NCBI GenBank assembly: GCA_903847485.1
Contig: CAINDV010001020.1
Location: 1 to 42,108, forward strand
Length of the DNA: 42,108 nucleotides
Direction of reading: 5' to 3'
Source: an uncultured Verrucomicrobiota bacterium
Lineage (GTDB): Bacteria; Verrucomicrobiota; Verrucomicrobiia; Limisphaerales; JAJXZI01
Below the pieces are notes generated by a model, which saw nothing but the letters and a program-made list of their open reading frames with translations, was not told the origin of the DNA and searched no databases. The position numbers and the translations under genes were made by a program. This document shows positions 1,585 through 36,810 of this stretch, piece by piece; within the stretch, counting starts at the first letter, position 1, and each line of letters begins with the position of its first letter.

Positions 1585-3513
1585 TCAATTCTCCGCCGAG
1601 TGCAATCCGCCGGTGCCGGCGCGGAAGGCGATGTTCATGCGGTCAGGTTCGCCGGGGATGGCGGTAGCACAATTCCAAAGACAGGCACCGCAATGGACGC
1701 ATTTCTCGCGGTCGAAGGCCGGCACGGGGCCTTCGCCGGGAGTTATGGCTTGTCCGCTACAAGCCTCGATGCAAACCTTGGTGCCGCACTGTTTGCATAA
1801 CTCCGGGTGGAGAAAGACGACATGGTCCGCATAGCCCGGCGGTGCCTGGACCTTACCGCCCATGAGCAAGGCGTCTTGATGGGAGACGAGTAACTGTCCA
1901 TCATAGGGAATCGCCGGCCAGCCGACCTTGTCCATCAGGGCACCGTGGAGTGAGACGCTCTTGGCGCGACATTCCTCGCGGAGGCGGGCGATCTCGTCGG
2001 GTGATATGCGGTCGCGGTAGTAGTCTTCGAGACTCGGAATGCGCTGCCAAGGCGGCACTGGCTCACTGCTTAGGTTGAGACGGCCGTCTGTCAGGCCCGC
2101 CAGTGCCATGCCGATCATGCCGCGGACGACGCCGTGTTGGAAGCCATCGCGTGATTTCTCGGCGGCAATGGCTTCGGCTTCGACCCAACTGGCGCGACGG
2201 AGTTGCACGTAGGTTTCGTCGAGATTTTGCTTGGTGAAAGGTTTCTTCGCTTTGAGCAATTCCAGGACGGCTTGGGCCAATTGAGCGCCGGTGGTCCAGG
2301 CTTCGTCCACGCCAGAGCCGGTGAGGACGTTGGTGCTGCCGCTACATTCGCCGATGCGGGCGTAACCGTCGCCGGTAAGATGCGGTTCGCCGCGGCGGCC
2401 GGATTCGCCGAGGGTCTTGGCACCCCAGGAGCGGAGCTTGCCGCCCTGGAGATATTGCCAGAGGTAGGGATGAAGCATCCAGTGTTGGAGATAGCGATAG
2501 GCGGTGCGCGCGGGGTTGTCGAACCACGACGGCACAAAGATGCCGAGCGACGCGACACGATCGGGGTGGACGTAGAGGAAGCCGAATATCTCTGGTTCGG
2601 GATAGCCAAAGGTGTGCAGCACTGTGCCCGGCTTGAGAGTCGTGTCTGCGGGCAAGTCCACCACGAACTTCATGCCGATGGCCCAATCGCGGGTGTGATG
2701 GCCTTCGGGCATACCGAAGTGGGCGTCCAATTGCTGGCCGATGGCACCGACGGGGCCATCCCCGATAACCGTGAGGGCAGCGCGGATGTCCATGCCGGGC
2801 GTGAAACCGTCGCCGGGGCGGCCTTGTTTGTCCACGCCTTGATCGAGCAGGCGGACGCCGACGACCTTTCGGCCATTAGTGGCACAGGCATCTTGCCTGT
2901 GCGTTGTTTCTGTAACACACAGGCAAGATGCCTGTGCCACTTCCTCGATCAACACTTCCGACACCGGCGTGCCGGGCCAGATTTGCACGGTGCCGGTGCC
3001 TTGCACTTGCGCGCCGACCCATTGCATGAACTGCCCCATAGAAAACACCAGTCCGCCGGTCTTATGGAGGAAACCCGGGGTCCAAGGTAACTCGACCGCA
3101 CTTTGCGAGCAGGGCAGCGCCCATTGCAGCAGCTTGACCATTTCATCCGCCGCGCCGAGGGCCATCGAACGGCGGCTGGCACCCACCGGGTCGAGCAGAT
3201 AGAGCACCTTCTCCTCACCGACGGGCGCGGACATGGGAATGCCGGCGTGGTCAAGGTCGGGGAAAGTGGCGCGCAAGCCGCGGGCTTTGGTGACGACGCC
3301 GGAGACGCCGAAGCCGATGTCATCGGCGCGCTCGTAACAGAGCACTTGCGGTGGCAGGCCGGGCATGACGGCGCTTTCGACGGCGGGGGTGCCGTCGGGA
3401 TTGACGAGTTGCTGGGACAGCGTGGCGAGGAAGCCTGCCGTCGCCGGCCCGAAGCCGACGCAGACGATGTCCACATCCATGCGCTGACGTTCTACGATGG
3501 GTTCGGTGCTCAT
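1585..3513 (-). CDS. FAD-dependent oxidoreductase with 4Fe-4S ferredoxin domain (ETF-quinone oxidoreductase-like)
   Basis: This is a 642-residue flavoprotein. The N terminus holds a dinucleotide-binding motif (VDIVCVGFGPATAGFLATL), the middle has a second flavin-associated segment (VIGDGPVGAIGQQLD) and a GSTNVLTGSGVDEAW stretch, and the C terminus (about 570-642) carries two cysteine clusters, CKQCGTKVCIEAC and CVHCGACLWNC. This is the layout of electron-transfer-flavoprotein:quinone oxidoreductases, which pass electrons from ETF to membrane quinone; the second cluster makes it more ferredoxin-like than classical ETF-QO. Near residues 190-212 a 64-bp perfect palindrome is inserted in frame and adds about 20 foreign residues (AQASCLCV...RQDACAT). 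The frame is kept, so the protein may still work. Homologous fragments of its last 35-50 codons occur at 630-775 and 32193-32300. Confidence 0.82.
   Translation of the reverse strand: MSTEPIVERQRMDVDIVCVGFGPATAGFLATLSQQLVNPDGTPAVESAVMPGLPPQVLCYERADDIGFGVSGVVTKARGLRATFPDLDHAGIPMSAPVGEEKVLYLLDPVGASRRSMALGAADEMVKLLQWALPCSQSAVELPWTPGFLHKTGGLVFSMGQFMQWVGAQVQGTGTVQIWPGTPVSEVLIEEVAQASCLCVTETTHRQDACATNGRKVVGVRLLDQGVDKQGRPGDGFTPGMDIRAALTVIGDGPVGAIGQQLDAHFGMPEGHHTRDWAIGMKFVVDLPADTTLKPGTVLHTFGYPEPEIFGFLYVHPDRVASLGIFVPSWFDNPARTAYRYLQHWMLHPYLWQYLQGGKLRSWGAKTLGESGRRGEPHLTGDGYARIGECSGSTNVLTGSGVDEAWTTGAQLAQAVLELLKAKKPFTKQNLDETYVQLRRASWVEAEAIAAEKSRDGFQHGVVRGMIGMALAGLTDGRLNLSSEPVPPWQRIPSLEDYYRDRISPDEIARLREECRAKSVSLHGALMDKVGWPAIPYDGQLLVSHQDALLMGGKVQAPPGYADHVVFLHPELCKQCGTKVCIEACSGQAITPGEGPVPAFDREKCVHCGACLWNCATAIPGEPDRMNIAFRAGTGGLHSAEN
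2878..2941. repeat. 64-bp palindromic repeat inserted in frame in the oxidoreductase gene
   Basis: Two perfect 24-bp arms (2878-2901 and 2918-2941) enclose a 16-nt loop. Each arm is itself a small hairpin (CACAGGC / GCCTGTG around ATCTT). In translation it gives the 'RQDACAT' type peptide that recurs in hypothetical proteins of Verrucomicrobia and Planctomycetes (family knowledge from memory). There is no transposase and no obvious target duplication. Confidence 0.92.
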
Positions 3514-28329: not shown

Positions 28330-30912
28330 TCACGAGCGTGGAGCAGCCGTCCCGCTGGCCTCATTCGTCGGTGAAGCCGGCTCCTTGGCGTCGCTCCGGG
28401 GAATCACTTGGACGGGGATCGGCTTATCAGCCGTGAGACGCATGTCGCGCTGGGGGAAGGGGATGGCGATGCCGTTTTCGGCAAACGCGCCGGCAATCAT
28501 GTGGCGCAGGTCGCTGGCGATCTGCGCGGCGTTGTGCTTCACGACATCCACCCAGTAACGTAACTCGAACGTCAGGGCGCTGTCGCCGAACTCCATGAAG
28601 AGCATTTGCGGCTTCGGCTCCTTATTCACCAAGCCGTGACGTTCGGCCACCTCGCCGAGCAGTTGCACCACGCGGCGCGTATCGGAGCCATAAGCTACGC
28701 CGACAGTGACCGTGAACCGCACGGTGCGGTTAGAGTAGGTCCAGTTAGTCAGGTTGTTCTCCAGTAAGGCGCTGTTGGGTATTAGTGTCTCGGTGCCATC
28801 CCAGCGCTGGATCACGCTCGAACGGAGGCCAATCCCAGTGACTGTGCCGCGCTGGCCAACGACATCCAACACGTCCCCGACCCGGAACGGGCGCTCGAAT
28901 AGGATGATAATGCCACTGATGAAGTTCTTGAGTAGGTTCTGGGTGCCGAACCCCACGCCGATGGCCAGGGCGCCGCCGGCAAAGGCGAAGACGGTCAGCG
29001 GAATCTTAACCGAGACTAGGCTGAACGCGATCAAGCAGAGTAGCAGCACCACCCGCACCCAGCGGCGGATCAGGCTCGCTTGGTTCGGCTCAATCTTAAG
29101 CCGCTTTACCGCCAGCGGCTCGACCAGGCGCGCGACCAGTCCAGTAAGCCAATAGCCCACGACGAGAATGAGCACGGCCAGGGTTATCTTGCCCACGGTG
29201 ACGGGGCGTTTGCCGTAGATGGACTGGCCGTCCACGATGATCGTGTCCTCGGCCACGAACAGTTCAAAACGCCACAGCTTGGAGACGAAGGTGGAAGTCT
29301 CGGCGAATAGATCCTTCACCCGCCCGGTGAAGGGCAGCGCCTGACGGTCAAAGTCGAGTGCCTCCCGCCAGCGCGAGACTACTTGCTCACGCTTCTCCAG
29401 GTTTTGCAGCGCGCGCTGGTACAAAGCCTCCCGCTGCTGGTAGGTCTCCAACCGTTCCCGCGTCAAGGCCGGGTCCGCCGCGGCGTCGCCCTGGTTTTGC
29501 AGGCGATTCTGCTGTTCGGTGACCTGGCTGGCCGCGAGCTCAATCTGCTGCCGGTAGTACGGTTTGGCCGCCTGGATAAGTCCGCTCACGCGGGTTAGTC
29601 GCTGGTAGGCCCGTTGTAACTCGGCGAGATCGCGGCTGCCGAACACGGCCAGCCGCATCTGCCACATCTGGAGCTCGCCGCCCAGACTCTCGAAGAGTTG
29701 TCGTAACACGGTCAACCGCTGGATACTGGTCTGCGCTTGGAGACCCCGCACCTCCACCACTTCCTGGAGGTGAAGCAGGACAGCCGCATTAGTAGTCCCG
29801 GCGAACTGCTCTTGCAGGGCGTGGCGCAGGTGTTCCCGGGCCTCAGTCAAGGCCCGCTGGCACGCCTCGATATTGGTGTCCGCTGCCTGAACCTCTTGGT
29901 CAAGTCGGCGTTGTTCTCTGGCTAAGTTGTCCAGGACTTTGTCGAGGTGCGCCTGAGTAAAGGTAACCTGCTGGGCGGCCACAGCCAGTTGTCGCTTGGT
30001 GGCGGTCAAGCGCTGACTAACCTCAACCATCTCTTCGGTGGCGATCTGGCGCTTCGTTTCTAAGGACGCGAGCGAGGCAGCCGCCGTGCGCTGCCGCGCT
30101 TGCTCCAGTTCCCGCTGCCAGGCCAGACGTGCGACGAGGGTGGGATCTTTGGTCCCTTCCGATTGCTCGGCGAAGCGGCGGAGCTTTTCGTCGGACTCCT
30201 TCAGGGCCGCTTGCGCGTCGGCCAGGAACTCTTCGATCACGGTGCGCGTGATCTCGGCGGCTCTGACTTTGGCATTGAGGGATTGGAGGGCGTTCCGTAA
30301 GTCGTCCACTAATAAGACCGAATACGGCGGCGGCTCCGCGAAACCGGTCCAGGAGTTGACGGTGCTCGCAAGATCCTGCTGCCGCTGCCGGGCGGCCTCC
30401 AACGCGGCCAGGTCCTCCAGGTGAAGCTGGCAGGTGCGGACTAATCGTTGCAGCACGGAACGGTAATCTATGGCTTCCGGCACCGTGGCACCGGCCGGGA
30501 GGTTGCTGGAAGTGTTCTGGGCCGCCTGGGCACGGCTCAAGTCAGCCTGGGCTTCCGCGAGTTTGGCCCGCAGGCTGGCGGCTAGTTCACCCACTCCTAA
30601 GCTGACGCCGTTGGTGGCCAGGCGCGGCGTTACGTCGCCCGCCAGCAATCCGCCAGCACTAAGCCGGGCCGATTGCGCCACTGCGTTGCTGGCCAAAACC
30701 AGACAGCAGAGGAGGACGATGAAAAACCCGAAATCCGAAATCCGAAATCCGAAATCCGAAATGGCTTCCTGCCGTTGGTCGAAAGCTGCTCTTTCTGGAA
30801 GGCGACTTAGACAAAGTGATTCGGATTTCGGATTTCGGATTTCCTTCGGATTTCGGATTTCGGATTTCGGATTTTCCCCCTCTCCCCCGCCATTGTAAAT
30901 TCCGGTTCTCAT
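28330..30912 (-). CDS. large mechanosensitive channel (MscS family, MscK-like)
   Basis: This frame has 860 residues. A long periplasmic coiled-coil region (about 90-560, Q/A/L/E-rich) precedes transmembrane helices and the MscS core. Landmarks are VFAFAGGALAIGVGFGTQNL, LLKNFISGIIILFERPFRVG and SVIQRWDGTETLIPNSALLE. This fits the extended MscK/YnaI-type architecture, which opens on membrane tension to release solutes. The start is uncertain. Residues 14-68 are encoded by tandem CCGAAATCCG-type repeat DNA in frame (RNPKSE..., FRISDFGF), directly fused to a hydrophobic export signal (FFIVLLCCLVLASNAVAQS). The natural start may have been overwritten. Downstream the ion-channel-like gene follows within 20 bp. 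Confidence 0.88.
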   Translation of the reverse strand: MRTGIYNGGGEGENPKSEIRNPKEIRNPKSESLCLSRLPERAAFDQRQEAISDFGFRISDFGFFIVLLCCLVLASNAVAQSARLSAGGLLAGDVTPRLATNGVSLGVGELAASLRAKLAEAQADLSRAQAAQNTSSNLPAGATVPEAIDYRSVLQRLVRTCQLHLEDLAALEAARQRQQDLASTVNSWTGFAEPPPYSVLLVDDLRNALQSLNAKVRAAEITRTVIEEFLADAQAALKESDEKLRRFAEQSEGTKDPTLVARLAWQRELEQARQRTAAASLASLETKRQIATEEMVEVSQRLTATKRQLAVAAQQVTFTQAHLDKVLDNLAREQRRLDQEVQAADTNIEACQRALTEAREHLRHALQEQFAGTTNAAVLLHLQEVVEVRGLQAQTSIQRLTVLRQLFESLGGELQMWQMRLAVFGSRDLAELQRAYQRLTRVSGLIQAAKPYYRQQIELAASQVTEQQNRLQNQGDAAADPALTRERLETYQQREALYQRALQNLEKREQVVSRWREALDFDRQALPFTGRVKDLFAETSTFVSKLWRFELFVAEDTIIVDGQSIYGKRPVTVGKITLAVLILVVGYWLTGLVARLVEPLAVKRLKIEPNQASLIRRWVRVVLLLCLIAFSLVSVKIPLTVFAFAGGALAIGVGFGTQNLLKNFISGIIILFERPFRVGDVLDVVGQRGTVTGIGLRSSVIQRWDGTETLIPNSALLENNLTNWTYSNRTVRFTVTVGVAYGSDTRRVVQLLGEVAERHGLVNKEPKPQMLFMEFGDSALTFELRYWVDVVKHNAAQIASDLRHMIAGAFAENGIAIPFPQRDMRLTADKPIPVQVIPRSDAKEPASPTNEASGTAAPRS
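30722..30874. repeat. inverted tandem CCGAAAT repeat in the 5' end of the MscS gene
   Basis: About four direct copies of a CCGAAAT-based 10-mer (30722-30762) face about five complementary copies (30821-30874) across a 58-bp spacer. All are read in frame by the MscS-type gene. Related copies occur near 26303, 26800, 33582 and 36831. Confidence 0.88.
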
Positions 30913-30922
30913 TCGCCCGGCC

Positions 30923-31103
30923 TCACTTCATGCCCTGCCTGACATCAATCAACAGTTGGTCCGCATAGTCTATCCGGATGAGGCCCAGGCGGGGGAACTC
31001 CAGATCGAGAATGACATAGATAGTAAGCGACATGATGAAGGCGAAGCCGAGGATGTGGAACCAACTGAACTGCGGAGCGTCCAGAAAGCAAATTCCTATC
31101 AAT
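30923..31103 (-). pseudogene. C-terminal fragment of a bestrophin-like/DUF4239 membrane protein
   Basis: The minus strand reads LDAPQFSWFHILGFAFIMS, LTIYVILDLEFPRLGLIRID, then YADQLLIDVRQGMK and a TGA at 30923-30925. ILDLEFPRLGLIR is the typical end of DUF4239 (bestrophin-like) proteins. The frame is closed by a stop just upstream and no start is available, so about 200 N-terminal residues are missing. The first 12 codons are shared with a second copy at 32513-32550, so the fragment was split by the island that follows. Confidence 0.68.
31066..31103. repeat. 38-bp direct repeat, copy A
   Basis: This copy is identical at 36 of 38 positions to 32513-32550, in the same orientation (shared core TCCAGAAAGCAAATTCCTAT). 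It marks the left boundary of the AT-richer island 31104-32512 and lies in the bestrophin-like fragment. Confidence 0.9.
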
Positions 31104-31127: not shown

Positions 31128-32171
31128 TCATATAAATTCGATTTCTTTACCCTGCCAGTAACTGGCGATACGTCCCATTTGGACGTAGGTTTCCATCCCC
31201 CCGCAGTGCACCCCGCGTGCCTCTATAAACTGCACGAGCGAACTGTCAGGCATACAAGTTCCTGAAGAATCAGATACAACCATTAAGGCTATCGGTGGTC
31301 TTCCGGCGGAAATGTCAGCATCAGCCATTGCCCGTAATGCCCCAAGAAGCGTAGCCTGATGTTCTATGCTTTCAGAGTATCTCGCTCCTAATACTCTTGG
31401 TCCTATATCCTCATAAAATGTTGGACTCCTTCCATTCACCTTCACATGTTCGACAAGAATAAGATATAAGATTTTCAGCCATTCGTTGGTGTCCTTATCG
31501 AAAGCATTCAAGCACACTTTAACGGTGGTTGAAGTCTCGGGATTTGAATCGGTTGGGTTGCGATTCTTATCAGAAGGTATTTCAAGATCACGAAGAGTTT
31601 CAATCTCGGATATTGAATATGATTTTCCACACCGGCAAATGGCGGCGTTTGATTTAAAATCAAAGTCATCAGATCTTATTCCGAGAGCATATTTTGATAA
31701 AAACGCTCTGTCCTCTGGAGACTGATAAGGTTGAATAGCAGAACGTGTATTCTTAAGATACAGTGTGCAATATGTCCTGCCACATTTGCATCTGAAGACG
31801 ACGTCCCTGCAATGCCTACAACGCACATACTCGCCAAGTGAAAAAGTCGCGGTAACATCCCATTCATGTCCATCCTTTTTGATCCCTCCGCAGAGACGAC
31901 ATATGCAGCCATTCCATTTGTGCCCTTCCTGACGAGTCTTGCCGCATTTCAAACATTTGCAACCTTCCCAAGAGTGAACAGCGGCCTGCATTTTGTCGCA
32001 TTTGGCGCACTTCTCGCAATCCTTGGAATAATCGTGGTTCTCGTCACGCGTCTTATTGCATATCCCACATTTGCAACCAGCCCACTCGTGGTCTTGATCG
32101 CGGTTCTTTCCACATACTGAACATTTGCAATCCGTCCATTTGTGGAATCCTAATTTGCATAACAGGCTCAT
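31128..32171 (-). CDS. protein with five tandem zinc-ribbon-like repeats and a novel C-terminal domain
   Basis: This is a 347-residue protein. Residues 9-105 hold five repeats of about 18 residues with the pattern H-(K/E/S)-W-x-x-C-K-C-x-x-C-G-K-x-R, for example HEWAGCKCGICNKTR and HSWEGCKCLKCGKTR. A further cysteine set (CRHC, CKCGRTYC) follows at about 118-136. The C-terminal half (220-347) contains YEDIGPRVLGARYSESI, LLGALRAMADADISAGRPP and ALMVVSDSSGTCMPDSSLVQ. That combination weakly recalls domains with an MGMT/ATL-like 'PP-lvV..-SG' layout, but I do not recognise the family. A good ribosome site (AAGGAA, 32178-32183) precedes the ATG. Base composition is clearly AT-richer than its neighbours, and it lies between 38-bp direct repeats, so transfer is likely. 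Cysteine spacing suggests metal binding and perhaps nucleic-acid or protein contacts. Confidence 0.75.
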   Translation of the reverse strand: MSLLCKLGFHKWTDCKCSVCGKNRDQDHEWAGCKCGICNKTRDENHDYSKDCEKCAKCDKMQAAVHSWEGCKCLKCGKTRQEGHKWNGCICRLCGGIKKDGHEWDVTATFSLGEYVRCRHCRDVVFRCKCGRTYCTLYLKNTRSAIQPYQSPEDRAFLSKYALGIRSDDFDFKSNAAICRCGKSYSISEIETLRDLEIPSDKNRNPTDSNPETSTTVKVCLNAFDKDTNEWLKILYLILVEHVKVNGRSPTFYEDIGPRVLGARYSESIEHQATLLGALRAMADADISAGRPPIALMVVSDSSGTCMPDSSLVQFIEARGVHCGGMETYVQMGRIASYWQGKEIEFI

Positions 32172-32192: not shown

Positions 32193-32300
32193 TTAATTCT
32201 CCACCGAGTGTATTCCACCTGTGCTGGCGCGGTTGGCGATGTTCATGTGTTCGGGATTGTTCGGATTAGCCTGCGAACAATTCATCAGGCACGCGCCACA
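32193..32300 (-). pseudogene. second ferredoxin C-terminal fragment
   Basis: The minus strand reads CGACLMNCSQANPNNPEHMN then IANRASTGGIHSVEN and a stop. It matches the end of the oxidoreductase at 1585-3513 (CGACLWNC...MNIAFRAGTGGLHSAEN) but is more diverged than the copy at 630-775. No start or upstream cluster is present in frame. The stop is 21 bp ahead of the zinc-ribbon gene start on the same strand. Confidence 0.75.
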
Positions 32301-32373
32301 GCGGGAAGTTGATTTAGACATTGCCGGATTTGGGTTTGTTTGCTGCTTTTTCGTATTCACGCAAAGTTTTTTC

Positions 32374-32487
32374 CTATTCCGCGATGCGTTCCTCGATTTG
32401 CCTGCGGTCGGCGAGGTGTTCGTCCATTTCCATTTTCGGAAACATGGACTCCGCGTAATACGGCAGATGGCCGGAGGTTTTATACAT
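32374..32487 (-). pseudogene. probable threonyl-tRNA synthetase fragment
   Basis: A 37-codon frame begins MYKTSGHLPYYAESMFPKME. The pattern xYxTSGHxPYYxxSMFPxM is characteristic of the class II catalytic core of ThrRS. A TAG ends it, but the same frame continues with a charged helical stretch (EKTLREYEKAANKPKSGNV). It is far too short for an enzyme, so it is a relic or a chimeric piece. Confidence 0.5.
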
Positions 32488-32512
32488 TTTGTCTTGGGCT
32501 GGTTTCTGGCGT

Positions 32513-32550
32513 TGAACTGAGGAGCATCCAGAAAGCAAATTCCTATCAAT
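32513..32550. repeat. 38-bp direct repeat, copy B
   Basis: This is the partner of 31066-31103, same orientation, two mismatches. It begins inside the PPK2 stop codon region and marks the right edge of the island. Confidence 0.9.
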
Positions 32551-33475
32551 GCTCTTGCTGGGTAGCCTCCGGCTCGGTCGGCTTACCCTGCTTCTCCTTG
32601 GCGGCTAAGAGTTGCTGCCACTTTTTCTTCCCGATCTTCTTCTCTTCTTCCTTCTCCGCGTGATGGTATTGGCGCGTGATGGCCTTGAGGTCCACGGTCG
32701 GTTTCGGGAACTTCATGTCCATCGCTTGCATCGTTTCCGCGACAATCTTCGCCACCGCGAGATTGCGGAACCACTTATTGTCCGCGGGGATGATGAACCA
32801 CGGCGCGTGCTTAGTGCTAGTCTGGCGGAGAAGGTCTTCGTAAGCCTCGGTGTAATCATCCCAGAACTCCCGCTCCGTATAGTCAGTCTCGCTGATCTTC
32901 CAATGACGGGCCGGGTCGTCCAGCCGTTGCTTGAAACGCGCGAGCTGTTCCTCCGGACTGATGTGGAGGAAGAACTTGAGGATGCGCGTGCCATTCGCCA
33001 CCAACCCTTGCTCAAAGTCATTGATCATCGCGAAACGCTTTCCCCAGACCTTGTCGGGAACCAACTTATGCACGCGAGTTACCAGCACGTCTTCGTAATG
33101 CGAGCGGTTGAAGATCACAACCTCGCCCCGCTTTGGCACCTGTTCTTCTATCCGCCAGAGAAAGTCATGCGCGGCCTCTTCTTTCGACGGTGCCTTGAAG
33201 CCGTGGACCCGCGCGCCCTGCGGATTCATCGCGCCAAGCACATGGTTAATAGTGCCATCCTTGCCGGCGGCGTCGAGCGCCTGCAGGCAGATGAGCAATG
33301 ACTGCTTGCCCTCGGCATAGAGCAGATACTGCAAGGCGCGTATTTCCCGGTCGAGTTTCTCGACTTCCTTAGCCGCCGATTTTTTGCGGTCGTGGTCCCC
33401 AGTGAAGTTGGGGTCAATCTTCTTCAAGCGGACCCGGCTGCCGGGCTTTACTTTCAATAGTTTAGTGTATTTCAT
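32546..33475 (-). CDS. ppk2: polyphosphate kinase 2 family protein
   Basis: This is a 309-residue PPK2. The Walker A motif is ALDAAGKDGTINHVLGAMNP near residue 65, the lid/Walker B region is VVIFNRSHYEDVLVTRVH near 125-140, followed by NDFEQGLVANGTRILKFFLH and the family-typical RLDDPARHWKISETDYTERE. Such enzymes transfer phosphate between polyphosphate and nucleotides in the cytoplasm; length and motifs suit a one-domain PPK2 acting on AMP or NDPs, but the class cannot be fixed by eye. The C-terminal 35 residues are lysine- and glutamate-rich. The stop codon overlaps the 38-bp direct repeat, so the gene borders the inserted island without obvious damage. Confidence 0.93.
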   Translation of the reverse strand: MKYTKLLKVKPGSRVRLKKIDPNFTGDHDRKKSAAKEVEKLDREIRALQYLLYAEGKQSLLICLQALDAAGKDGTINHVLGAMNPQGARVHGFKAPSKEEAAHDFLWRIEEQVPKRGEVVIFNRSHYEDVLVTRVHKLVPDKVWGKRFAMINDFEQGLVANGTRILKFFLHISPEEQLARFKQRLDDPARHWKISETDYTEREFWDDYTEAYEDLLRQTSTKHAPWFIIPADNKWFRNLAVAKIVAETMQAMDMKFPKPTVDLKAITRQYHHAEKEEEKKIGKKKWQQLLAAKEKQGKPTEPEATQQEH

Positions 33476-33651: not shown

Positions 33652-36600
33652 TTAGTGAGCCGGCGTGGCGGGCGGGTTAGCTTCAGCGGGCTTGGCCCCC
33701 TCGTGTTTGCCGCCGCCCAGTTTCTCCACCACATAGAACGTGACCGGGATAAGGAAGATCGCTATGGCGCTGGCCGCCAACATACCGCCAATGACGGTGA
33801 AACCCATGACTTGCCGCGAGAGAGCGCCGGCCCCGCTCGCCTTGGCCAGCGGCACGCAACCCAGGATGAAGGCGAAGCTGGTCATCAAGATCGGACGCAA
33901 CCGCAGCCGGGCACCCTCCAGCGTGGCGTCCAACAGCGGTTTGCCTTGCTCATAACTCATCTTACAAAACTCAACGATGAGAATGGCGTTCTTAGCCGCC
34001 AGGCCGATGAGCATGACTAAGCCGATCTGGGCGTAGATGTTGTTCTCGTAGTGGCCGACCATGAGGGCGGCGAACGCGCCGAACACGGCGATAGGCGTGC
34101 CCAGCAGCACGCTGAACGGCAGGCTCCAGCTCTCGTATTGCGCCGCCAGGATCAGGAACACACACAGTAGCGAGAAGCCGAAGATAACCATCGGGGAGAT
34201 GCCTTCCTGCGCCTTCTTCTCCTGGTAACTCATGCCCATGTAGTCGTAACCCATTCCGTCCGGCATGGTCTGGGCGAAGACCTCTTCCAGCGCCTTCATG
34301 GCCTGCGCCGAGCTGTATCCGGGCCGAGCCGAAGCGTTGATCTGGGCGGACTCGTGGAGGTTGTAGCGCAGGGTAAACTCCGGGCCGATGGTGTTAGTGA
34401 CGCTGGTGACGGCGGCCAGCGGCACCATGTTACTGGCGTTGTTGAGGACATAGAACTGGCCCAGGTTCTGGGCGTCGTTGCGGTAATCGCCCTCGGCCTG
34501 CACATACACCTGCCACTGGCGACCGAAGCGGTTGAAGTAGTTCACAAACGCGCCGCCCATGAAGCATTGCATCGTCTGGTAGACGTCCTGAAGCCGCACG
34601 CCTTGCTGCAAGACTTGGTCGCGGTCCACGTCCACATACACCTGCGGCACCGACAGGAGCGCGGTGGTGAACACGCCGGCTAACTCGGGCCGCTTCTGCG
34701 CCGCCGCGATGAACTTAGTTAGATTAGGCACCAGAAACTCAACGCCCTTGCCCGAACGGTCTTCGAGGATGAAAGTCACGCCACCGGACGCGCCGACGCC
34801 GGGAATGGCCGGCGGCGGAAAGGCGAAACCCACCGCGCCGGGCAGCTTGCCGAACTCCCGGTTCAGATGCTCCTTGATGGCGATGTATTGTTCCTCGGGC
34901 TTCTTGCGCTCGTCCCACTTATCCAGTGTGATGAAGAAGAAGGCGCTGTAAGTGTTGTTGACGCCGCTTAACATGCTGAAACCAATGACTGAGGTGTAAT
35001 ACTTGATGCCCGGCGTCTGCTTGAGAATCTCCTCAGCCTGCCTTACCACCTCATCGGTGCGTTGGAGGGAGGCGGCATTGGGCAACTGCACGCCGGCAAA
35101 GACGTAGCCTTGGTCCTCATCCGGCAGGAAGCTCGCCGGCACTCTCTTTCCGAAGAACCCCGCCAGCACGGTCAACCCGACGAGCAGCAGCAGCGCGATG
35201 GCGCTCTTGTGGATCAGCACGCGACACAGGCCGACGTAACCGTCGGTGGCTTTGCCGAAGAGTTGGTTGAAGCCGTCATAGAACTTCTGGAGCAGCCCGG
35301 TGCCCTTGGCCTTGGGCCGGAGGAGCAGGGCGCACAGCGCAGGCGACAGGGTAAGGGCGTTGAACGCGGAGATCACGACGGACACCGCGATGGTCACCAC
35401 GAACTGTTGATAGAGTCGCCCAGTGATGCCGGGAATGAAGGCCGTGGGGACAAACACGGCCGCCAGAATGATAGCGATAGCCATGACCGGGCCGGAGACT
35501 TCCTGCATGGCCTTAAGCGTCGCGTCCTTGGGTGACAAGCCTCTCTCGATGTGATGCTCGACTGCTTCCACCACCACGATGGCGTCGTCCACCACTAACC
35601 CGATGGCGAGCACTAAGCCGAAGAGTGACAGCGTATTGATGGAGAAGCCGAACAGGGGGAATAGCGCGAAGGTGCCGATAAGTGACACCGGCACAGCGAG
35701 CAGCGGGATGAGTGTCGCCCGCCAGCCTTGGAGGAAGATGAAGACCACGATGATAACTAGCGCCAGCGCCTCCACGAGTGTCTTCTGGATTTCCTTCATG
35801 CCCTCCGTCACCGCCAGCGTGGTGTCCAGCGAGACTACATAGTCCATGTCCGGCGGGAAGCTCGCCTTAAGTTTCGCCATGAGCGCCTTGGCGTCGGCCG
35901 CAGCCTGGACGGCGTTGGAATCGGGAAGCTGGTAAAGCGCGACGAGTGCCGAAGACTTGCCGTTGAGCCGCGCCTTCATGCTGTAATTCTGCGCGCCCAG
36001 TTCGATGCGGGCCACGTCCTTCACCCGCACGATGGCCCCGCCCGGCGCGGCGCGCAGCACGATTTCGCCGAACTGTTCCGCCGTTTCCAGGCGGCCTTGC
36101 GCCCGCACCGCATAAGTGAATTCCTGCCCGCTGGGCACCGGCTCGCCACCTATCTGGCCGGCGGGGTTCACGTTGTTCTGGGCCTGGAGGGCGTTGATGA
36201 TTTCCGGCACCGTGATGCCCATTTGCGCCAACCTATCGGGCCGGACCCAGAGGCGGATGGCGTATTGCCCGGCACCGAAGACTTGGACGCTGGCGATGCC
36301 CGGCACGCGGGTCATCTGGTCGTTAATGTTGATGTAGGAATAGTTGGCTAGAAAGATACCGTCGTAGGTGTTGCTCGGCGAATAGAGCGCGAACATGATA
36401 AGTGGCGCGGCGGTGGACTTCTGGACGGTGACGCCTTGGTCAGTCACGGCGGAGGGTAGTTGCGAGTTAGCCTGGCTCTGCCGCATCTGCGCGAGGATCT
36501 GATCGGTGTTCGCGTCGGTCTTGACGTTGAAATCCACCACCAGCTTCATCGAGCCATTGTTGGCGTTCAGGGAATACATGTATTCCATGTTATCCACGCC

Positions 36601-36810
36601 GGACATCTGCTGCTCAATAGGCGTGGCCACCGACTGGTCCACGGTGACGGCGTCGGCACCGGGATAGCTGGCCTGCACCTGGATCTGCGGGTCGGCGATG
36701 TTAGGGAACTGTGCGATGGGCAGGCTGGACATCGCGACCAGGCCGATGATGACCATCAGGATGGCGATGACCATCGCGACGATGGGGCGGTTGATGAAGA
36801 ATTTGGCCAT
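33652..36810 (-). CDS. RND multidrug efflux permease (HAE-1/AcrB family)
   Basis: This is a 1052-residue inner-membrane antiporter. It starts MAKFFINRPIVAMVIAILMV, the standard TM1 of the family, and shows two six-helix repeats separated by large periplasmic loops. The TM4 proton-relay pair is in LVLAIGLVVDDAIVVVEAVE, and motifs GPVMAIAIILAAVFVPTAFI and YESWSLPFSVLLGTPIAVFG match AcrB/MexB. It should export hydrophobic compounds using the proton gradient, with the adaptor at 38085-39281 and probably the outer-membrane factor at 24813-26258. In the usual operon the adaptor is directly upstream; here a nuclease gene (36957-38039) and a repeat lie between, so co-expression may be altered. The C-terminal tail is alanine- and proline-rich. 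Confidence 0.95.
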   Translation of the reverse strand: MAKFFINRPIVAMVIAILMVIIGLVAMSSLPIAQFPNIADPQIQVQASYPGADAVTVDQSVATPIEQQMSGVDNMEYMYSLNANNGSMKLVVDFNVKTDANTDQILAQMRQSQANSQLPSAVTDQGVTVQKSTAAPLIMFALYSPSNTYDGIFLANYSYININDQMTRVPGIASVQVFGAGQYAIRLWVRPDRLAQMGITVPEIINALQAQNNVNPAGQIGGEPVPSGQEFTYAVRAQGRLETAEQFGEIVLRAAPGGAIVRVKDVARIELGAQNYSMKARLNGKSSALVALYQLPDSNAVQAAADAKALMAKLKASFPPDMDYVVSLDTTLAVTEGMKEIQKTLVEALALVIIVVFIFLQGWRATLIPLLAVPVSLIGTFALFPLFGFSINTLSLFGLVLAIGLVVDDAIVVVEAVEHHIERGLSPKDATLKAMQEVSGPVMAIAIILAAVFVPTAFIPGITGRLYQQFVVTIAVSVVISAFNALTLSPALCALLLRPKAKGTGLLQKFYDGFNQLFGKATDGYVGLCRVLIHKSAIALLLLVGLTVLAGFFGKRVPASFLPDEDQGYVFAGVQLPNAASLQRTDEVVRQAEEILKQTPGIKYYTSVIGFSMLSGVNNTYSAFFFITLDKWDERKKPEEQYIAIKEHLNREFGKLPGAVGFAFPPPAIPGVGASGGVTFILEDRSGKGVEFLVPNLTKFIAAAQKRPELAGVFTTALLSVPQVYVDVDRDQVLQQGVRLQDVYQTMQCFMGGAFVNYFNRFGRQWQVYVQAEGDYRNDAQNLGQFYVLNNASNMVPLAAVTSVTNTIGPEFTLRYNLHESAQINASARPGYSSAQAMKALEEVFAQTMPDGMGYDYMGMSYQEKKAQEGISPMVIFGFSLLCVFLILAAQYESWSLPFSVLLGTPIAVFGAFAALMVGHYENNIYAQIGLVMLIGLAAKNAILIVEFCKMSYEQGKPLLDATLEGARLRLRPILMTSFAFILGCVPLAKASGAGALSRQVMGFTVIGGMLAASAIAIFLIPVTFYVVEKLGGGKHEGAKPAEANPPATPAH

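What the first reader, a model, noticed from the sequence alone, without database searches (positions are those of the whole stretch)
31128..32171. Unfamiliar protein with five tandem H-W-C-x-C-C zinc-ribbon repeats
The repeats are nearly regular at about 18 residues and feed into a C-terminal domain I cannot place. Composition and context argue for recent transfer. This is the least familiar intact gene in the window.
Basis: partly seen in the sequence, partly recalled or inferred. Interest (0 to 1): 0.58.

Follow-up and report, generated by a model that had tools for sequence, protein, structure and literature searches.

The report
Zinc-array protein with phage-like tail domain
A bacterium of the phylum Verrucomicrobiota carries an intact, probably acquired gene whose protein joins a string of small zinc-binding repeats to a domain otherwise seen alone in giant phages and in some proteobacterial proteins; it is probably a binding or regulatory adaptor rather than an enzyme or toxin, and each half belongs to a family that still has no name.

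Summary
An intact 347-aa ORF (31128-32171, minus strand) carries five H-x-W/Y..C-x(1,2)-C-x2-C units at 18/18/20/18/18 residues; shuffles never gave more than two. Related arrays suggest a better register: each site is the last Cys of one unit plus His and C-x-C of the next. This uses every ligand, including Cys5, and gives five complete sites plus a sixth closed by C118/C121.

The protein is modular. Similar N-terminal arrays (2 to about 11 units) occur in scattered Verrucomicrobiota, an Atopobiaceae MAG, a MAG of unstated phylum and a virus-labelled contig, each with a different C-terminus, one with HEAT and ankyrin repeats. No Pfam, NCBIfam, PADLOC or PHROG family fits.

GC3 is 0.43 against 0.71-0.83 for neighbours. 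The gene lies among gene relics between two copies of an order-wide 38-bp repeat, so foreign origin is likely; "recent" is not shown. Best reading: a non-enzymatic, multivalent zinc-array/wHTH-like adaptor. It is a new architecture of uncharacterised modules.

The parts
31128..32171 (-). ORF of 347 aa, the finding; intact, ATG start with AAGGA about 8 nt upstream
31809..32159 (-). N-terminal zinc-binding array, residues 5-121: five H-x-W/Y..CxC..C units plus a closing H102...C118-x2-C121
   Evidence: AF2 pLDDT about 70-83 over residues 1-100 with a repeated hairpin pattern
31515..31808 (-). Cys-containing middle region, residues 122-219 (C128-x-C130, C135, C179-x-C181), low-confidence fold; no relative found in 313 genomes of the order
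31152..31475 (-). C-terminal domain, about residues 233-340: jumbo-phage / NifU-fusion / standalone proteobacterial domain family, wHTH-like by weak signals
31066..31103 (+). 38-bp direct repeat, copy 1, 24 bp beyond the stop codon
32513..32550 (+). 38-bp direct repeat, copy 2 (95% identical), overlapping the stop codon of the PPK2 gene
32318..32509 (-). threonyl-tRNA synthetase fragment with an internal stop (relic); an intact homologue lies elsewhere in the same genome
30926..31063 (-). 3'-end fragment of another gene (46 aa), cut at the repeat; homologues sit in larger frames (167 and 262 aa) in two relatives

Best explanation
The gene encodes a modular, non-enzymatic binding protein. Shown by sequence: (1) residues 5-121 form a tandem zinc-ligand array of the kind that opens many otherwise unrelated bacterial proteins; (2) residues about 233-340 belong to a small helical domain family found alone in jumbo phages and alone or fused to NifU in Proteobacteria. 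Inferred: each zinc ion is held by the last Cys of one unit and the His and C-x-C of the next, so that neighbouring units are stapled into a stiff rod; that rod is a multivalent docking surface for a protein or nucleic-acid partner, and the C-terminal domain (wHTH-like) supplies a second binding activity, so that the protein acts as a bridging adaptor or regulator. It was probably acquired by lateral transfer into a recombination-prone spot between repeats and gene relics.
For: Array periodicity beyond chance. Cys before the first H-x-W in 14 of 14 arrays, at residue 5 in 12 of them, and complete ligand use in one register. Array module with unrelated C-termini in other genomes, one with HEAT and ankyrin repeats, i.e. 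protein-interaction partners. C-terminus against phage proteins: phmmer 29 bits in a pairwise test; HMM built from phages only gives the window 21.8 bits against at most 4.0 in 2,000 shuffles; invariant Y, P, G, D, R, P, A, S, P. Phage family against bacterial family: hhalign 96%. wHTH hints: PF01035 in 4 of 13 members, best E 0.0011; HTH_IclR, AsnC, HTH_24 in one; MGMT 1mgt weak. Bacterial members sit beside HTH or XRE genes in P. aeruginosa and Mesorhizobium. No catalytic family found. Composition and context.
Against: Every HTH match is below Pfam cut-offs. The window's own C-terminus has no HTH match and scores only 9.2 bits with the bacteria-only profile, a score one shuffle in 2,000 exceeds, so the link to the bacterial family runs through the phages. 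AF2 models are weak (C-term pLDDT 61, full length 58) and match no PDB fold. No full-length homologue was found, so the pairing of modules cannot be tested for conservation. Zinc binding itself is untested.
Confidence: 0.45

Rival explanations
1. Component of a biological-conflict (immunity-like) system: the variable C-termini behind a common zinc array are sensors or effectors, and the C-terminal domain is related to the alpha-helical VMAP-M0 region of vWA-MoxR-VMAP ternary systems.
For: Arrays are fused to HEAT/ankyrin and other variable C-termini. Two of 13 family members match VMAP-M0 weakly, best E 0.011. VMAP-M regions are reported as highly variable and proposed as invader sensors (PMC7159879). 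The domain is carried by jumbo phages. One array pair lies in an IMG/VR contig next to serine recombinases.
Against: No PADLOC hit; the two immediate neighbours are PPK2 and an MscS-type channel; VMAP-M0 matches are below the Pfam cut-off; the window domain itself does not match.
Confidence: 0.15
2. Zinc (or other metal) storage, buffering or redox-sensing protein: the Cys/His array itself is the function, metallothionein-like.
For: 26 Cys and 10 His in 347 aa, 16 Cys in the first 105; the neighbourhood contains an RND efflux system (from the sequence of ORF 33652-36810).
Against: Strict spacing, conserved Trp and G-K-x-R between ligands suggest a folded recognition scaffold rather than a storage peptide; related arrays carry large unrelated C-terminal domains; the RND pump is separated by PPK2, gene relics and a repeat, and the gene's composition is foreign.
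Confidence: 0.12
3. Stranded, non-functional cargo: an intact ORF lately carried into a gene graveyard and not yet decayed.
For: Flanked by relics of ThrRS and other genes and by a dispersed repeat; no homologue of the middle region or C-terminus in sampled relatives.
Against: Full-length frame with AAGGA upstream of the ATG and every zinc ligand intact, while the neighbouring ThrRS relic carries a stop.
Confidence: 0.15

Closest known systems
Unnamed bacterial N-terminal zinc arrays (MNLKCLxGxHxWxGCKCxxCGKTRDExHDW...), e.g. L105, L107, L108, L112, L113, L049, L052, L048
   Same: M-x3-C-x-x-G-x-H-x-W opening, 18-residue units, C-x-C-x2-C-G-K-x-R spacers
   Different: Different C-termini; none of those examined carries the window's C-terminal domain; unit number 2 to about 11
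Jumbo-phage 127-aa hypothetical protein (Alexandravirus, Sasquatchvirus, Salmondvirus, Yoloswagvirus, Rivsvirus; e.g. AWY08582.1)
   Same: C-terminal domain: Y-x-D-L/I-x-P, G, D-I-x-x-G-R-P-P-hydrophobic-A, V-S, P in order
   Different: Standalone, no zinc array; about 20-25% identical; lacks a counterpart to residues 1-219
Proteobacterial domain fused to NifU (e.g. WP_347309624.1) or standalone (e.g. WP_200883220.1, WP_003114793.1)
   Same: Same motif order Y-x-x-L-A ... D-A-x-x-G-R-P-F-x-A-A ... V-S-R ... L-P-x-x-G-F-F
   Different: Window has lost the FF after the Pro; direct similarity is not significant, the link is through phage sequences
Pfam PF01035, O6-methylguanine-DNA methyltransferase DNA-binding domain (winged helix)
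   Same: Y-G-x-L-A helix region aligned in some family members
   Different: Below gathering score; no PCHR active-site motif; not matched by the window domain itself
VMAP-M0 (PF19916)
   Same: Sub-threshold match in two family members
   Different: Below gathering score and not matched by the window domain itself; no vWA/MoxR gene immediately beside it (PPK2 and MscS)

Membership tests
Bacterial N-terminal zinc-array proteins (unnamed) | Cys before the first H-x-W, near the N-terminus | tested here: met
   14 of 14 arrays including the window; residue 5 in 12 of them
Bacterial N-terminal zinc-array proteins (unnamed) | Tandem about 18-residue units C-x7-H-x-W-x2-C-x-C | tested here: met
Bacterial N-terminal zinc-array proteins (unnamed) | Binds zinc | not testable with these tools
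   needs metal analysis of purified protein
Jumbo-phage / NifU-fusion C-terminal domain family | Profile match to phage members without the window in the profile | tested here: met
   21.8 bits, best of 2,000 shuffles 4.0
Jumbo-phage / NifU-fusion C-terminal domain family | Profile match to bacterial members alone | tested here: inconclusive
   9.2 bits, E 6.5 at Z=1e5; one shuffle reached 13.6
Winged helix-turn-helix domains (MGMT-type, IclR, AsnC) | Pfam gathering-score match | tested here: not met
   Only sub-threshold matches, in other family members
Winged helix-turn-helix domains (MGMT-type, IclR, AsnC) | Predicted fold matches a solved wHTH | tested here: inconclusive
   AF2 model pLDDT 61, helix order compatible, no Foldseek hit
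Known anti-phage defence proteins | PADLOC model match | tested here: not met
VMAP of vWA-MoxR ternary systems | VMAP-M0 profile match | tested here: not met
   Only sub-threshold, in other members of the C-terminal domain family
VMAP of vWA-MoxR ternary systems | Nearby vWA and MoxR genes | not tested
   Only the immediate neighbours were annotated (PPK2, MscS); no full annotation of the window was run

The most novel reading that the evidence does not exclude
The array proteins form a dispersed, fast-shuffling family in which a constant zinc-stapled rod at the N-terminus is paired with ever-changing sensor or effector domains, possibly in an immunity-like role, and the C-terminal domain taken up here is one that jumbo phages also carry, for instance as a decoy or counter-factor.
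Probability: 0.1. Interest if true: 0.75.

Novelty: new variant of a known kind. Interest (0 to 1): 0.38.

Why it matters
Two widespread protein modules without a Pfam or NCBIfam model are delineated and linked: an N-terminal zinc-ligand array with a testable site register, and a small domain shared by jumbo phages, alphaproteobacterial NifU fusions and standalone proteobacterial proteins. Naming them would give an annotation to many 'hypothetical proteins', and the swapping of C-termini behind a constant array raises a concrete question about what the array docks to.

Tried and rejected
Full-length family match: none in Pfam, NCBIfam or PADLOC; two sub-threshold PHROG hits. Full-length relatives by peptide pattern in genome contigs and viral contigs: none. 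C-terminal domain in 320 genomes of the order and 388 of the phylum: only the window itself; the four E 0.008-0.09 hits were judged chance matches in unrelated frames. Middle region: no relative in 313 genomes of the order. Plasmid and phage tblastn with the array: only chance-level matches. Fold search with either AF2 model: no usable hit. PDB sequence match to RPS29e: E 0.56, rejected. Integron-cassette reading of the flanking repeats was considered; no attC-like R'/R'' motifs were seen by eye, and at several other places the same repeat sits just upstream of gene starts, so it was dropped. Papers on tandem zinc ribbons: none held in the library. A profile comparison of A7 with A9 shares rows on both sides and is not used as evidence. 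Two of the query alignments (A5, A6) held a hand-made consensus row and were used only to fish for loci, not as evidence.

Full report
What is there. The ORF at 31128-32171 on the minus strand is intact, 347 aa, with an ATG start and AAGGA about 8 nt upstream. Five units of the form H-x-W/Y..C-x(1,2)-C-x2-C begin at residues 10, 28, 46, 66 and 84, with a sixth H-x-W at 102. No more than two such units arose in any of 100,000 shuffles of residues 1-105.

A better reading of the repeat. Comparing 14 arrays from this and other loci, every one has a Cys before its first H-x-W, in 12 of them at residue 5, and most close with a final C-x2-C. If a site is read as the last Cys of one unit plus His and C-x-C of the next, the window has sites C5-H10-C15-C17, C20-H28-C33-C35, C38-H46-C52-C55, C58-H66-C71-C73, C76-H84-C89-C91, and a sixth C94-H102-C118-C121; no ligand is left over. 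This is an inference from sequence; the AF2 model (residues 1-100 at pLDDT about 70-83, a hairpin in nearly every unit) is compatible but does not decide it.

The array is a module. Of 196 genomes of the order, 8 including the window's own have a match to the protein at E 0.01 or better; the clear matches lie in the array, and the two weakest are doubtful. In a phylum-wide sample with a profile 4 of 388 match. One of the order's contigs is titled Verrucomicrobia bacterium ADurb.Bin118 (contig number, length and sequence agree), which places the window in Verrucomicrobiota. Arrays also occur in an Atopobiaceae MAG, a bacterial MAG (SZUA-191) and an IMG/VR contig with serine recombinases; a Clostridia record was also returned, but my array filter did not recover an array ORF there. 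Their C-termini differ; L105 has HEAT and ankyrin repeats, L112 has about eleven units. None of those examined carries the window's C-terminal domain.

The C-terminal domain. tblastn against phages gave matches at residues 248-324 to a 127-aa hypothetical protein of Erwinia jumbo phages (E down to 0.03), which with its own relatives covers Erwinia, Dickeya and Yersinia phages (57 records). An alignment keeps Y, P, G, Q, D, R, P, A, S, P, W in all members. A profile from phages alone scores the window at 21.8 bits, while 2,000 shuffles of its C-terminus reach 4.0. A weak plasmid hit led to a NifU-fusion in Defluviimonas, and its last domain led to Maritalea and Octadecabacter fusions, each beside a P-loop NTPase gene, and to further proteobacterial loci including small proteins in Agrobacterium, Mesorhizobium and Pseudomonas aeruginosa. 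Phage and bacterial families match at 96% probability. The window against the bacterial family alone is not significant (9.2 bits), so that link is transitive. Members of the family give sub-threshold matches to winged-helix families: PF01035 in 4 of 13, best E 0.0011, and 1mgt in the PDB at E 0.24. I call it wHTH-like as an inference only. AF2 gave a helical model of low confidence and no PDB match.

Context and origin. The gene has GC3 0.434 where five other genes of the window have 0.71-0.83, and the GC drop coincides with the gene. It lies between PPK2 (32546-33475) and an MscS-type channel (28330-30912); no toxin, nuclease or phage gene is next to it. Around it are a threonyl-tRNA synthetase fragment with a stop (intact copy at G000:C607), a fragment resembling the C-terminal tail of the window's own ORF 1585-3513, and a 46-aa 3' fragment of another gene. 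The stretch is bracketed by two copies of a 38-bp repeat that has about 33 matches in the genome and occurs in 23 of 58 sampled genomes including its own, at up to 100% identity. So the site is recombination-prone and the gene probably foreign; timing is not shown. The MAG is 76% complete with 5% contamination, although flanking high-GC genes on the same contig argue against a binning error.

Function. No catalytic family was detected. The most economical mechanism is a multivalent zinc-stapled rod joined to a second binding domain, i.e. a bridging adaptor or regulator. A role in phage-bacteria conflict is possible (jumbo-phage homologues; VMAP-M0 sub-threshold; PMC7159879 describes VMAP-M regions as variable and proposed sensors) but unsupported by the immediate neighbours or PADLOC.

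Verdict. Real, intact, unusual as an architecture, and both ends now placed in families that lack a curated model. It is a new variant built from uncharacterised but recurrent modules, not a categorically new system.

Noticed in passing
window 31066-31103 and 32513-32550; also G000 contigs C840, C495, C970, C1285 and others: A 37-38 bp dispersed repeat (TGAACCGCGGAGCGTCCAGAAAGCAATTTCCTATCAG) gives 33 matches in this genome and is found in 23 of 58 sampled genomes of the order, up to 100% identical. All 10 contigs with two or more matches have them in one orientation. Longer copies (about 71-100 bp) often precede gene starts and in several keep a frame reading LNRGASRKQFPIS.
   Followed up: partly
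window 30720-30885: Inverted arrays of the 7-bp unit ATTTCGG/CCGAAAT inside the start of the MscS-type channel ORF, so that its first residues read NPKSEIRNPK; the true start may lie further downstream.
   Followed up: no
window 32193-32512: Gene graveyard: a ThrRS fragment with a stop, and a fragment ending CGACLMNCSQANPNNPEHMNIANRASTGGIHSVEN that resembles the C-terminal tail of the window's own ORF 1585-3513 (CGACLWNCATAIPGEPDRMNIAFRAGTGGLHSAEN).
   Followed up: partly
L017, L040, L041: On three alphaproteobacterial plasmids a P-loop NTPase gene overlaps a gene (two annotated NifU family, one DUF6522 family) whose C-terminus is the same domain as in the window; a conserved two-gene unit.
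   Followed up: no
L112:1144-2139: A protein with about eleven tandem zinc units, the longest array seen, in a genome (G443) with a second array gene (L107).
   Followed up: no
L048:2495-3800: Two array-like zinc genes in tandem beside serine recombinases in an IMG/VR contig, suggesting carriage on a mobile element.
   Followed up: no
L009, L014-L016, L018: The jumbo-phage homologue keeps its neighbours (a roughly 310-430 aa ORF before it, a roughly 150 aa ORF after it) across several phage genera.
   Followed up: no
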